Of a stretch of 64,000 nucleotides of DNA, positions 11,426 to 62,165 are shown one piece after another. The stretch lies in contig NZ_KK073875.1 in NCBI RefSeq assembly GCF_000585395.1, positions 5,671,519-5,735,518 on the forward strand. The letters are read 5' to 3'. Position numbers and translations under genes: made by a program. The DNA comes from Saccharibacillus sacchari DSM 19268. Lineage in GTDB: Bacteria; Bacillota; Bacilli; Paenibacillales; Paenibacillaceae. The first letter of the stretch is position 1. Each line of letters opens with the position of its first letter. Below the pieces are notes generated by a model. It was given only the letters and a program-made list of their open reading frames with translations, made no database searches and was not told the DNA's origin.

Positions 11426-13366
11426 ATGAGCAAGCACGAGCAAACAGCCAAATCCGTCCTCGAAAAAATCGGCGGAGAATCCAACGTCAAAACAATGACC
11501 CACTGCATGACGCGCCTGCGTTTCGAACTGCGCGACAACGACAAAGCCGACCGCGCGGCACTGGAAAATACGCCGGGCGTTATGGGTACCAACATCGCAG
11601 GCACGCAGTTCCAGGTCATCATCGGCAACGATGTACCGAAAGTATACGAGCAAATCAACAAAATCGGCGCATTCGGCGGCGGCGGAGCCGCTCAAGACGA
11701 CGACGTGCCTAAAAAGAAAAGCAATCCGTTCTCGGCCTTGCTGGACATCATCTCCGGAATCTTCACGCCGCTGCTGCCCGCTCTTGCCGGCGCAGGTATG
11801 ATCAAAGCGCTGTTGTCCGTATCCGACGCGTTCGGATGGATGGCAGCCGACGGCAGCACGTACCAAATCCTGAAAGTAATCGGTGACGGTACATTCTTCT
11901 TCTTGCCGATCCTGATCGCGTTCAGCGCGGCGAAGAAGTTCGGCAGCAGTATGTTCTTAGCGGCTGCGATAGCCGGCGCCGTCCTTCACCCGGAACTGAC
12001 GGCCCTGTTCGGCAGCGGCGGAGATCTGAACTTCCTCGGATTACCCGTTACCGTCGTGACGTATTCATCGTCCGTTATTCCGATTCTGCTCGCAATCTGG
12101 GCATCTTCTTATGTCGAGAAATTCTTGGATAAAGTCATTCCGAGCGCACTGAAGTTACTGTTCGTTCCGATGCTTACCCTGCTGGTTATCGTACCGGCAA
12201 CCTTGATCGCTTTCGGTCCTGTCGGCAGCATCATCGGCGAAGGTCTGGCTGGCGGCATCACTTGGTTGCTTGATAACACGGGCATCTTCGGCGGTCTGGT
12301 TCTCGGTGGTACCATGTCGCTGATCATCATGACAGGTATGCACTGGGCACTCGTTCCAATCGCGATTCTCTCGCTGGCCGAACAAAATTTCGACTACATC
12401 TTGCCTATCATGTTCGCGGCCAACCTGGGTCAAGCAGGCGCTACATTCGGCGTATTCCTGCGCTCCCGCAACCCGCAATTCAAGGCTCTGTCGCTGTCGA
12501 CCAGCTTCTCGGCCATGATGGGTATCACGGAACCTGCGATGTACGGCGTTAACATGCGCCTGAAAAAACCTTTCGTTTCCGGCCTGATCGGCGGCGCGGC
12601 AGGCGGCGCGATCTACGGACTGTTCCACGTTAAGATTTATGTAATGGCAGGCGGCGCAGGTCTTCCGGGTATTCCGGCCATGATCGGTCCAACCTTCGTT
12701 TACGGCATGATCGGTATGGCTGTAGCCTTCGCCGTTGGTGCTGCCGTTACTTTCGTAATGGGCTTCAAAGATATAGCGGTCCCTGCATCCGAAACAGCCG
12801 CAGCAGCGGATGCTGTCGCTCCAGCTGCATCCGCAGAAGCTGCTCCTGTAGCAGCCGTAACGCCTGCAATCGTTGAAATTCGTAACACTGAACTGTCCAG
12901 CCCACTGACAGGTACGGTTAAAGCTCTGGCTGACGTGGACGACGCTACATTCGCCGGCGAATACATGGGCAAAGGTATTGCCGTTGTTCCTAGCGCAGGC
13001 GTCGTTACAGCTCCGGCTGACGGCATCGTGAACTCCCTGGCCGTAACCAAGCACGCCGTAGGCATGCAAACGGCAGACGGTACGGAACTTCTGATCCACA
13101 TCGGTCTGAACACCGTTCGTCTGAAAGGCCAACATTTCAACGTCCTCGTTGAAGAAGGACAAGCCGTAACCGCAGGTCAACCGCTGATTACCTTCAACAT
13201 GAACGCCATTCGCGCGGCAGGTTACGACCTGACCACGCCGATGATCGTGACCAACACGAAGGAATTCGAAGGCTTCACGGCACTGCACAGCAGCTCGATC
13301 GAAGCGGGTCAACCGCTTCTGAAGCTTGATGTCGCGACTCCGAAGCTTGAAGCGCTGGGCGACTGA
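11426..13366 (+). CDS. bglP: PTS beta-glucoside-type permease EIIBCA
   Basis: 646 aa, start preceded by AGAAAGGAAGG. Domain order is EIIB (1-85, phosphorylated Cys in THCMTRLRF near residue 27), EIIC with about ten membrane helices (105-460, including MGITEPAMYGV), an Ala/Pro linker, and EIIA (490-640, active His in LLIHIGLNTV). The B-C-A order and the LicT-type RAT indicate the beta-glucoside (BglP/BglF) branch; sucrose or trehalose specificity cannot be excluded. It takes up and phosphorylates the sugar at the membrane. No phospho-beta-glucosidase gene follows, so hydrolysis must be encoded elsewhere. Confidence 0.93.
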   Translation: MSKHEQTAKSVLEKIGGESNVKTMTHCMTRLRFELRDNDKADRAALENTPGVMGTNIAGTQFQVIIGNDVPKVYEQINKIGAFGGGGAAQDDDVPKKKSNPFSALLDIISGIFTPLLPALAGAGMIKALLSVSDAFGWMAADGSTYQILKVIGDGTFFFLPILIAFSAAKKFGSSMFLAAAIAGAVLHPELTALFGSGGDLNFLGLPVTVVTYSSSVIPILLAIWASSYVEKFLDKVIPSALKLLFVPMLTLLVIVPATLIAFGPVGSIIGEGLAGGITWLLDNTGIFGGLVLGGTMSLIIMTGMHWALVPIAILSLAEQNFDYILPIMFAANLGQAGATFGVFLRSRNPQFKALSLSTSFSAMMGITEPAMYGVNMRLKKPFVSGLIGGAAGGAIYGLFHVKIYVMAGGAGLPGIPAMIGPTFVYGMIGMAVAFAVGAAVTFVMGFKDIAVPASETAAAADAVAPAASAEAAPVAAVTPAIVEIRNTELSSPLTGTVKALADVDDATFAGEYMGKGIAVVPSAGVVTAPADGIVNSLAVTKHAVGMQTADGTELLIHIGLNTVRLKGQHFNVLVEEGQAVTAGQPLITFNMNAIRAAGYDLTTPMIVTNTKEFEGFTALHSSSIEAGQPLLKLDVATPKLEALGD

Positions 13367-13523: not shown

Positions 13524-13715
13524 TAACGGATCGCATATCCTTTACAAGCCCGAATGAACGGCTTTTACGACTTTAACGGATTGTATATCCTTTAGCCGTT
13601 TTTTAGGGCTTTTTTTCCGTGCAAAACCCGCCTATTTTCATTCTAAGCGCTACCTGGTTCCGTTAGAATTTTCAAATCGCTTAAATTATGCGCTAAGCGT
13701 CGTCTCGATCCGTTA
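13524..13715. repeat. R4 four-unit phased repeat array, locus 1
   Basis: Four 22-base units of form TAACGGAT-N6-GACGCTTA (degenerate): starts 13524(+), 13574(+), 13644(-) and 13694(-), spacings 50, 70, 50. The plus units read TAACGGAT..., the minus units end in TCCGTTA. A second locus with the same geometry is at 23864-24056. This fills the gap between the PTS terminator and the next gene. Confidence 0.8.
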
Positions 13716-22710: not shown

Positions 22711-22738
22711 CCCGTTCCTCTGGGCCAAAGTCTCAGTG

Positions 22739-22933
22739 TGTCGAGAAAGTTACGTATGCGCGGGGAAGCGAAAAGACTGCGAGAGAAATTCGTTCCGGTC
22801 GCGTGTTGAAATCTGAAAAAAGGATTGAAGTTTTATTTGTATTTTCCCGATTTCAAAGGCGAGCGCTAACGCTCCTGCACTGAATTTCTCTCTCCGTCTT
22901 CTCGCTTCCAGCTACGTTGGGCTTTCTAGACAC
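22739..22933. repeat. R1 intergenic inverted-repeat element, copy B
   Basis: Arms run from TCGAGAAAGTTACG at the left to ACGTTGGGCTTTCTAGA at the right, containing ACTGCGAGAGAAATTCGTTC and CTGAATTTCTCTCTCCGTC. It follows the M13 gene directly. Confidence 0.8.
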
Positions 22934-22936
22934 GTC

Positions 22937-22968
22937 GACTTCGATCCTTCGGATCGAAGTCTTTTTTT
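22937..22968 (+). terminator. intrinsic terminator downstream of the M13 gene and R1-B
   Basis: GACTTCGATCC, loop TTC, GGATCGAAGTC, then seven T. The R1-B element lies between the stop codon and this terminator, so R1-B should be transcribed. Confidence 0.9.
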
Positions 22969-23815: not shown

Positions 23816-23864
23816 ACGAAAATTCGGCAGCATCCACATCCGTCGAGGTTTGAAGAAACGCCCT
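23816..23864. repeat. R3 element remnant (one end only)
   Basis: ACGAAAATTCGGCA, then CCGTCGAGGTTTGAAG and ACGCCCT, match the right end of the MITE-like R3 element at 41852-42055. The other end is absent. It abuts the R4 array. Confidence 0.6.
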
Positions 23865-24056
23865 AACGGATCGCATATCCGCTGGGACACTCATTTTCGC
23901 GATCTAAAATTTGTAACGGATCGTAGGGACGCTTAAACTGAAAAAGCGGGTGAAATGAGTACGAAAATCGGCCTTTTTCACCGCTAAGCGTCGCCTCGTT
24001 CCGTTACAAATCTCAATTCCCCAATTTGGAGCGCTAAGCGTCATGTCGATCCGCTA
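23864..24056. repeat. R4 four-unit phased repeat array, locus 2
   Basis: Units at 23864(+), 23914(+), 23985(-) and 24035(-), 22 bases each, spacings 50, 71, 50. Best-conserved unit: TAACGGAT-CGTAGG-GACGCTTA. The centre holds an extra hairpin, AGCGGGTGAAA with TTTCACCGCT. Same geometry as the locus at 13524. Confidence 0.82.
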
Positions 24057-38747: not shown

Positions 38748-38932
38748 ATTGTTGCGGATAAGCAAAAATCAGAAGGCCATAGAGTCTAATTCGTGATCAT
38801 TGTTGCTAAAAGGCAAGAATTTGGGAGTATTTGAGCTTTTATACGCTTTTTAGAGAGAAATTGTTGCTTATATGCAGGAAGCTGGCATTTTAAGCTGCTT
38901 AGCAAGTGAAATTCTTGCGTATACGCAAGAAT
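38748..38932. repeat. R5 four-unit phased repeat array, locus 1
   Basis: Four 22-base units ATTGTTGC-N6-GCAAGAAT (degenerate) start at 38748, 38799, 38860 and 38911, spacings 51, 61, 51. The last unit is a perfect palindrome. Identical spacing recurs at 61981-62165. It occupies part of the 657-base gap upstream of the GNAT gene; nothing else is seen from 38489 to 38747. Confidence 0.85.
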
Positions 38933-60058: not shown

Positions 60059-60168
60059 AACGCGAACGGCAGTCTGCAATCGCGGAGACGTTGGCCAAAG
60101 GCGATAAACAAGTAAATCACACAGCAAACGATTCGGCAAAAAGCGTCGATTGATCGCAGCGGAAAGAA

Positions 60169-60351
60169 AATGTTGCGTGCTTCCCGCATTTTTCGTTAGA
60201 TGAGCAGATTCAAACTGAAATGTTGCAGACATCCATCAATTTTTCGCTTTTCCGACGATTAGTAGGAAACTGGCGCAAAATGATGGACGTTCGCAACATT
60301 TTTTGGTGTAAACCGCTGCTTTGGCCGAAAATGATGGATAGCCGCAACATT
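60169..60351. repeat. R6 four-unit phased repeat array
   Basis: 22-base units AATGTTGC-N6-CCATCATT at 60169(+), 60219(+), 60279(-) and 60330(-), spacings 50, 60, 51. The minus units read AATGATGG-N6-GCAACATT. Same geometry as R4 and R5 with a different sequence. It lies in the 575-base gap before the MurG-type gene. Confidence 0.85.
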
Positions 60352-60529
60352 TTGCGCAAACGGTCGCGGCTTTTGGCGGCCTTTTACATCTGTTCCCCGC
60401 GAATCTATGCGCCGAATGCGTTCGGCGGAAGCTTTCTTTCCAATCCGACCGTATCTTTATTCGAACGCTCCCCGTTGCAAGCACGTGCATGCAGCGCGTT
60501 TTCGCGCAGTTCGTTTTCTGTTCGGCCTC

Positions 60530-61750: not shown

Positions 61751-61850
61751 GACGCTGCGGGAGAAATTCGTTCAATACGCTGTCTCACGAAGAAAGCTTT
61801 CAGCTTTCCTCGTTCAAAGGCGTCTTTCACTGAATTTCTCCCTCCGCTGG
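61751..61850. repeat. R1 intergenic inverted-repeat element, copy G (short)
   Basis: GCTGCGGGAGAAATTCGTTC, ACGAAGAAAGCTT; right arm AGCTTTCCTCGTTCAAAGG, CACTGAATTTCTCCCTCCG. It begins right after the murG stop and before its terminator. Confidence 0.8.
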
Positions 61851-61980: not shown

Positions 61981-62165
61981 ATTGTTGCGAAAAAGCAAGA
62001 ATGATTAGGGATTGAGCTTGGAATTGAGATCATTGTTGCTAAAAAGCAACAATTCTCGACTGAAAAAGGCGTTTTAGGCTTTTAAGGGCAGCATTATTGC
62101 TTGTTCGCAACAATGACGTTCTCTTGCCCGGTTTATCGCCTAAATTGTTGCTTATACGCAGGAAT
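61981..62165. repeat. R5 four-unit phased repeat array, locus 2
   Basis: Units start at 61981, 62032, 62093 and 62144, spacings 51, 61, 51, identical to locus 1. Unit 2, ATTGTTGC-TAAAAA-GCAACAAT, is palindromic outside the N6. Confidence 0.87.

What the first reader, a model, noticed from the sequence alone, without database searches (positions are those of the whole stretch)
60169..60351. R6: four 22-bp units in ++-- order at 50/60/51-bp spacing; the same architecture as two unrelated families in this window
Seen: units AATGTTGC-N6-CCATCATT start at 60169, 60219, 60279, 60330, the last two inverted. R4 (13524, 23864) and R5 (38748, 61981) have different unit sequences but the same form: 22 bp as 8-N6-8, four copies, spacings about 50, 60-71, 50. 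All the spacings are close to multiples of 10 bp, so units would sit on nearly the same DNA face. Each unit has partly dyad-related half-sites, like a dimer operator. Inference: three lineages of one undescribed element or protein-binding platform whose recognition sequence diverged while the geometry was conserved.
Basis: partly seen in the sequence, partly recalled or inferred. Interest (0 to 1): 0.85.

Follow-up and report, generated by a model that had tools for sequence, protein, structure and literature searches.

The report
Repeated four-site DNA-wrapping elements
Between genes of Saccharibacillus, Paenibacillus and relatives lie many short DNA stretches in which four copies of a protein-binding-like site stand at fixed helical distances on DNA that looks built to bend around something; the site sequence differs from family to family while the geometry stays the same, and no such class of element turned up in the papers searched.

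Summary
R6 (60167-60353) has four dyad units in ++-- order at 50/60/51 bp; R4 and R5 share the form. R6 recurs with the same spacing in four other Saccharibacillus genomes and Paenibacillus soyae. A sequence-blind scan with free pair spacing (28-85 bp) found 44 intergenic tetrads in samples totalling 1.34 Mb from five genomes; in 37 both spacings are 49-53 bp, and shuffled DNA gave none. Families differ in sequence. In the 76 of 109 tetrads with a clear dyad, centre distances are 51, 60-62 or 71-72 bp, i.e. whole helical turns. New here: the spacers, not conserved in sequence, carry a 10-bp AT/GC alternation in phase with the sites, ending near the outer units, as in DNA bent or wrapped round a protein. 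Unit arms show almost no compensatory changes, so this is duplex DNA, not a hairpin. Elements are intergenic, enriched between convergent genes; in three of four orthologous pairs units are better kept than spacers. No RAYT-type transposase was found in the host genome. Best reading: a family-specific protein binds as four dimers and wraps about 187 bp. Protein and role are unknown.

The parts
60167..60353 (.). R6 element, four-unit ++-- array (the finding)
   Evidence: orthologue in G071 at the same place
60167..60192 (+). R6 unit 1 (right half degenerate)
60217..60242 (+). R6 unit 2
60277..60302 (-). R6 unit 3
60328..60353 (-). R6 unit 4
60193..60216 (.). spacer 1-2; the two between-unit spacers of R6 together show AT phasing that 22 of 500 shuffles reach
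   Evidence: family-wide
60243..60276 (.). central spacer 2-3; AT phasing that 16 of 500 shuffles reach
   Evidence: family-wide
60303..60327 (.). spacer 3-4 (see spacer 1-2)
   Evidence: family-wide
13524..13715 (.). R4 element, units at 13524+, 13574+, 13644-, 13694- (50/70/50)
23864..24056 (.). R4 element, units at 23864+, 23914+, 23985-, 24035- (50/71/50); shares about 110 bp of further right-hand sequence with the young R4 copies
38748..38932 (.). R5 element, units at 38748+, 38799+, 38860-, 38911- (51/61/51)
61981..62165 (.). R5 element, units at 61981+, 62032+, 62093-, 62144- (51/61/51), between convergent genes

Best explanation
Each element is a duplex-DNA platform of about 187 bp. 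A family-specific DNA-binding protein (unidentified) occupies four dyad sites as dimers, two in direct order and two inverted. The sites are 5, 6 (or 7) and 5 helical turns apart, so the dimers lie on one face, and the DNA between them, whose sequence matters mainly through its phased AT/GC steps, is bent or wrapped around the assembly, much as in a nucleosome. The elements are dispersed repeats without a gene of their own that have been copied in the past and lie outside coding DNA, often between convergent genes; there the complex most likely acts as a topological or transcription barrier. SHOWN: the sites, the geometry, the spacer phasing, dispersal, intergenic and convergent bias, better conservation of units than spacers in three of four orthologous pairs. 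INFERRED: the protein, the wrapping itself, the role.
For: Free-spacing scan: 37 of 44 tetrads have both pair spacings 49-53, 0 shuffled hits. Of 76 tetrads with a clear dyad (of 109; some are orthologues of each other) centre distances are 51 (3), 60-62 (68), 71-72 (5), nothing else. Spacer AT content oscillates at about 10 bp: amplitude 0.096 between units and 0.144 in the centre against maxima of 0.019 and 0.026 in 100 shuffles, flank 0.020; WW 0.57 at +19/+20 versus 0.07 at +24, SS the opposite, while spacers average 26-30% identity to each other in the four groups measured; 95 chance hits of the same scan give 0.002 and 0.004, 36 real ones 0.065 and 0.110. Arms: 2 compensated cells among 1,440 in R6, R5 and the TTA family. 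Orthologues: units 293/335 identical, spacers 265/373 over four pairs. Context: 44 of 46 in intergenic regions of 200 bp or more, 18 of 44 convergent against 14.9% expected by bases.
Against: No protein was identified and no binding or wrapping was measured. Spacer phasing does not exceed the shuffle maximum in G417 (6 elements: 0.055 against 0.070), G364 (2), the 51-type P. soyae rows (3) and two 61-type rows at R4 loci; in G380 (3) and the two 71-type G284 rows only the between-unit part does. Substitutions between orthologous spacers do not preferentially keep the AT/GC class (17 of 88, flank 82 of 290), so selection for bendability at a fixed locus was not shown. At the closest pair (own vs G071) units and spacers are about equally conserved (83/88 vs 88/95), and the G071 orthologue of the R5 element at 61981 lacks part of the array. 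Seven of 44 blind tetrads have other spacings. The 56-57 bp centre of the G380 family does not fit the turn rule unless its dyad is misplaced.
Confidence: 0.6

Rival explanations
1. Non-autonomous transposons (MITE-like): each half (two sites 51 bp apart) is a transposon end, the family-specific protein is a transposase acting in trans, and the phased bending helps bring two ends only 187 bp apart together. Host function is not needed.
For: Dispersed copies with shared spacers at different loci: young R4 copies 82-89% identical over about 300 bp; own L077 and G071 L117 share an R6 element and about 60 bp beside it but not the wider flanks; R6 not found in the syntenic stretches of G061, G091 and G148, nor R5 in those of G061 and G091. 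Unit families differ as transposon ends do.
Against: No transposase gene flanked by half elements was noticed, but this was not searched systematically; the two cases with a gene between units look like secondary insertions of an IS3-type element (family name recalled; rve and HTH_21 domains). Shared sequence of the young R4 and G380 copies runs beyond the outer unit on one side. No target duplication was evident in the alignments, without a systematic search. Centre length is nearly fixed across unrelated families, and units outlast spacers in three of four orthologous pairs.
Confidence: 0.25
2. Strong DNA gyrase (or topoisomerase IV) sites placed between convergent genes to relieve supercoils, with gyrase as the wrapping core.
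For: Gyrase wraps DNA, its E. coli motif has phased G/C content, and BIME-2 repeats bind it (PMC6379681, passages); convergent bias here.
Against: The published motif is 130 bp: two 47-bp G/C-periodic regions around a 36-bp central region (PMC12393610, passages); here phasing runs through the centre, where it is strongest, over about 187 bp. Gyrase would not need 22-bp units that differ by family yet are nearly fixed within one.
Confidence: 0.07
3. REP/BIME-type repeats: hairpin-forming palindromes spread by a RAYT (Y1) transposase.
For: Extragenic, dyad-symmetric, grouped, several families per genome; an IS lies inside units of two R4 copies, and REPs are described as IS targets (PMC1525189, title in a search listing).
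Against: No Y1_Tnp (PF01797) match in the host genome; the same search rings in 5 of 14 control genomes. Arms show almost no compensation, whereas compensatory changes are called common in REPINs (PMC3116915 passage); R6 mostly keeps T:T and C:C or C:G at two arm positions.
Confidence: 0.03
4. A structured RNA with four hairpins (3' end element or terminator).
For: Location near gene ends; terminator-like hairpins beside some copies.
Against: No Rfam match in the window or in 11 element loci; no arm compensation; spacing in whole helical turns and AT phasing of spacers have no evident meaning for RNA.
Confidence: 0.02

Closest known systems
REPIN / BIME (repetitive extragenic palindromes)
   Same: Short dyad units, inverted grouping, extragenic, dispersed, less conserved spacers, several families per genome, binding platform for proteins
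   Different: Four units at fixed helical spacing, almost no hairpin compensation, no Y1 transposase found in the host genome, unit sequences unrelated between families with a common geometry
MITEs
   Same: Small, dispersed, inverted symmetry, no own gene
   Different: Two spaced sites per half at a spacing shared by unrelated families; near-fixed centre; units better kept than spacers in old copies; no cognate transposase or target duplication seen (not searched systematically)
Nucleosome-positioning DNA (10-bp WW/SS phasing)
   Same: Anti-phased WW and SS steps with a period near 10 bp over a stretch of similar length (nucleosome figures recalled, not from a call)
   Different: Bacterial, with four sequence-specific dyad sites; no histone-like protein identified
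AsnC/Lrp octamers and RemA rings
   Different: No link to these proteins was tested; 51-bp site spacing and many unrelated site families are not mentioned in the passages seen
Strong gyrase sites
   Same: Long phased AT/GC motif, wrapped DNA
   Different: Length, phasing through the centre, and sequence-specific units differ

Membership tests
REPIN/BIME with RAYT | Cognate Y1 (HUH) RAYT transposase in the genome | tested here: not met
   PF01797: 0 matches in G000; rings in 5 of 14 control genomes. Tested in the window's genome only
REPIN/BIME with RAYT | Hairpin-forming palindrome with compensatory arm changes | tested here: not met
   R6, 112 units: 139 one-sided changes, 5 two-sided, 2 of them paired; R5 (40 units) and TTA (28 units): 0 paired. 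Elements above a mismatch limit were dropped first (R6 28 of 43, R5 10 of 47, TTA 7 of 21 kept; the rest include cross-hits of the loose patterns)
REPIN/BIME with RAYT | Extragenic location, many copies | tested here: met
MITE | Terminal inverted repeats at the element's ends and target-site duplication | tested here: inconclusive
   Outer units are inverted, but young copies extend beyond them on one side; duplications were not searched systematically; no precise empty site obtained
MITE | Related autonomous element carrying the transposase | tested here: inconclusive
   None noticed in the loci looked at; rve genes inside two R4 copies look like secondary insertions. Not searched systematically
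Gyrase site | Two 47-bp G/C-periodic regions around a 36-bp central region, about 130 bp | tested here: inconclusive
   Here the centre is the most strongly periodic part and the stretch is about 187 bp; definition from passages only; no cleavage data
Tyrosine-recombinase site array | Recombinase gene content that follows presence of R6 | tested here: not met
   4-8 PF00589 matches in each of 16 Saccharibacillus genomes; R6 carriers 8, 4, 7, 6, 5, the rest 5-8
Known structured RNA | Match to an Rfam family | tested here: not met
   0 matches in the window and in 11 element loci
Lrp/AsnC or RemA wrapped site | Binding by the protein | not testable with these tools
   no binding data; these genes were not searched for

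The most novel reading that the evidence does not exclude
Paenibacillales chromosomes carry tens to (by extrapolation from G284) hundreds of sequence-programmed, nucleosome-like particles: each forms on a 187-bp element with four sequence-specific dimer sites and spacers coded only for bending, and a genome holds several parallel families with different recognition sequences but one geometry, acting as insulators or supercoil barriers between genes.
Probability: 0.35. Interest if true: 0.95.

Novelty: categorically new. Interest (0 to 1): 0.88.

Why it matters
It would be a widespread, apparently undescribed class of bacterial DNA element in which geometry and bendability, not sequence, define the class, and it points to an unknown DNA-wrapping protein system in common soil bacteria. 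It makes a question testable that is usually approached through abundant unspecific proteins: whether bacteria have sequence-placed chromatin particles. That it is not in print rests only on the short listings in one open-access library; some of those queries were broad (one search matched 70,713 papers, 12 listed), so an older or closed description could have been missed.

Tried and rejected
Rejected: chance (shuffles; chance-hit control). RNA or single-strand hairpins. REP/RAYT. Tyrosine recombinases as the partner, suggested by the arm-N6-arm form (counts do not follow R6). A cluster of AAA proteins near two R5 loci looked like a candidate but is a mixed set of AAA ATPases. CRISPR-like spacers: spacers are shared in young copies and drift, so they do not look acquired. 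Gyrase motif: fits poorly. The R6 pair pattern in viral contigs: none. Inner units better kept than outer ones: no difference. Selection for W/S class in orthologous spacers: not seen. Literature: searches listed nothing of this kind; of the papers named I saw search listings and, for PMC3733652, PMC3116915, PMC2817692, PMC6379681, PMC8481266 and PMC12393610, passages only.

Open: the 56-57 bp centre of the G380 family may break the turn rule or reflect an ambiguous dyad; 33 of 109 rows with a weak dyad were dropped, among them most R4 and G380 elements. Of the 10 genomes ringing, tetrads were seen in own, G071 (L113), G417, G408 and G367; G386 gave only a doubtful hit (77) and G012, G032, G394 and G413 were not followed. 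Outside the order the same pattern rang once each in 2 of 112 genomes and its reversed form in none.

Sampling to know: stretches of own genome, G108, G050, G284 and G364 were placed at even steps; G364 was picked because a pattern had rung in it, G108 and G050 as single-contig genomes without R6. Of the 20 P. soyae stretches 13 contain a hit, so that sample is biased towards elements. One G216 stretch (L281) was fetched outside these sets and has no hit. The 84 rows were selected loci; the context count used is. Genes are from a home-made hexamer caller, not an annotation. Protein cluster labels are my reading.

Full report
1. The observation. R6 is real: four 22-bp (26 with A/T edges) dyad units at 60169, 60219, 60279 and 60330, ++--, spacings 50/60/51. 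R4 and R5 have other sequences and the same form. A scan that knows no sequence, only the ++-- arrangement, puts these families on top of the window.

2. Copies and relatives. In the host genome (one 6.08-Mb contig) R4, R5 and R6 queries give 53, 38 and 8 matching places, the query itself included (places are matches of units or parts, not elements). The genus is Saccharibacillus, judged from the titles of related records (13 of 14 loci Saccharibacillus, 1 Paenibacillus soyae). Of 295 genomes of the GTDB family 58 have some R6-unit match, but only five, all of the same genus, have more than three (own 7, G061 16, G071 13, G091 36, G148 29); the other 11 of that genus have 0-1. Of 20 R6 loci fetched from those four genomes 18 show four units, at 50-51/60-61/50-51; one has only the inner pair at 61 and one three units at 61/52. 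P. soyae has the same spacing, 51/61/51 (unit strands there are ambiguous, the units being nearly symmetric). With pair spacing allowed from 48 to 53 and centre from 58 to 64, the listed 42 of 43 R6-type elements fall on 49-51/60-61/50-51.

3. The geometry is general, the sequence is not. Scanning without sequence, new families appeared: two in 400 kb of the host, several in P. soyae. An order-wide pattern search (10 of 236 genomes) led to TTAATTGC-type elements in another GTDB family, seven of seven fetched loci at 50-51/60-61/50-51. The reversed control pattern of that search rang in 23 of the 236 genomes by my count, and in the eight genomes searched for it proved to be a further family of the same kind; in G380 12 of 13 such places are tetrads with 50-51 bp pairs. 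A genome of a third GTDB family, G301, has one too (L306). At a score of 78, where one shuffle of each sample gives nothing, hits are: own 8 in 464 kb, P. soyae 13 in 400 kb (one in a gene), G108 11 in 160 kb (two in genes, one a simple repeat), G284 14 in 160 kb, G364 7 in 160 kb (one a simple repeat), G050 none in 160 kb, E. coli none in 100 kb. Five 20-kb stretches from elsewhere in the class gave one hit, a 53-bp tandem repeat that I do not count. With pair spacings free from 28 to 85 bp, 37 of 44 intergenic tetrads have both pairs at 49-53 bp (50: 29, 51: 37, 52: 9 among all 88 spacings); shuffled intergenic DNA gave none. G284's density would mean several hundred per genome if even, an extrapolation.

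4. Helical phase. Dyad-centred, 76 clear tetrads have centre distances 51 (3), 60 (4), 61 (50), 62 (14), 71 (3), 72 (2) and pair distances 49-53 (33 rows with weak dyads left out, orthologues kept as separate rows). All are near multiples of 10.15-10.2 bp.

5. Bending code in the spacers. Averaged over 68 tetrads, AT content peaks every 10 bp from -90 to +90 around the midpoint and is flat outside. Restricted to positions 13-38 from a dyad, outside every unit, the amplitude is 0.096 (centre 0.144) against shuffle maxima of 0.019 (0.026); the flank, 0.020, is only just above its shuffles (maximum 0.016). WW and SS steps alternate in anti-phase although spacers average 26-30% identity in the four groups measured. 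Both parts exceed every one of 200 shuffles in own (6), G108 (6), G284 (7), the R6 loci (30), the 71-type R4 rows (3) and, narrowly, P. soyae (5); they do not in G364 (2), G417 (6), the 51-type rows (3) and two 61-type rows at R4 loci; G380 (3) and 71-type G284 (2) do so between units only. Ninety-five chance hits of the same scan show nothing (0.002, 0.004); in the window R6 alone is suggestive (22 and 16 of 500 shuffles), R5 and R4 are clear (at most 1 of 500). Selection here seems to see the shape of the DNA more than its letters.

6. Duplex sites, not hairpins. In 180 units (R6, R5, TTA) paired two-sided changes number 2 of 1,440 cells against many one-sided ones (elements with many mismatches had been dropped, see membership table). 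R4 was run too, with an uncertain frame, and shows 16 such cells of 1,116. Over four orthologous pairs units are 293/335 identical and spacers 265/373; the closest pair shows no real difference, the other three do.

7. Place and movement. 44 of 46 elements of the sample sets lie in intergenic stretches of 200 bp or more; convergent ones hold 18 against 15% of the bases (p about 3e-5; the P. soyae part of the sample is biased towards elements). Copies at different places with shared spacers show past copying: R4, R6 L077/L117. The syntenic stretches of G061, G091 and G148 have no R6; where own has R5 at 61981, G148 has a tetrad of another family (51/63/51 in the scan frame), G061 and G091 none.

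8. What it is. I take it as a duplex platform for four protein dimers with wrapped or bent DNA, spread as a repeat without a gene and retained between genes. It works like a positioned nucleoprotein particle; it is not shown to be a member of any known family. REP/RAYT fails two defining tests, gyrase sites fit poorly on the motif's form, MITE status is open. The partner protein is the missing piece: no element-specific neighbour gene was recognised, no Y1 transposase is found in the host, and tyrosine recombinase counts do not follow R6.

Noticed in passing
L069 1581-2869; L070 1914-3202 (own genome near 898.5 kb and 5847 kb): The same insertion sequence (97% identical copies, rve transposase; IS3-type by recall) sits inside a unit of two different R4 elements; it may favour these units as some IS favour REPs. 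Its copy number in the genome was not determined.
   Followed up: partly
L010 1351-1518 and 2033-2234; also L007: Another inverted-repeat element (CTAGGGCGTG...; 168-202 bp) lies flush against R4 units in L009, L010, L018 and L019.
   Followed up: partly
window 61753-61850 and about 22730-22940: Two highly repeated intergenic inverted-repeat stretches that look by eye like one family (GAGAAATTCGTTC...CACTGAATTTCTC); about 40 places of the first in G071, up to 96% identical; no Rfam match in the window.
   Followed up: no
L248 6436-6844 (G041 C13), L182 about 11750-12180 (P. soyae): Tandem arrays with a 51-bp period, about eight units each, so the 51-bp pair can expand.
   Followed up: partly
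L236, L237, L238, L242, L244, L245 (G380): Young copies carry a terminator-like palindrome of about 40-65 bp on one side of the four units, copied together with them.
   Followed up: partly
L111, L137, L141, L181, L269, L285, L287: In these seven loci two tetrads, mostly of different families, start 260-540 bp apart in one intergenic region.
   Followed up: no
G417/G408 elements, L224-L230: In most units arm asymmetry (TTAATTGC..GCAACTAA) runs ++++ while the purine-rich centres run ++--, so arms and centre seem to carry separate orientation signals.
   Followed up: no
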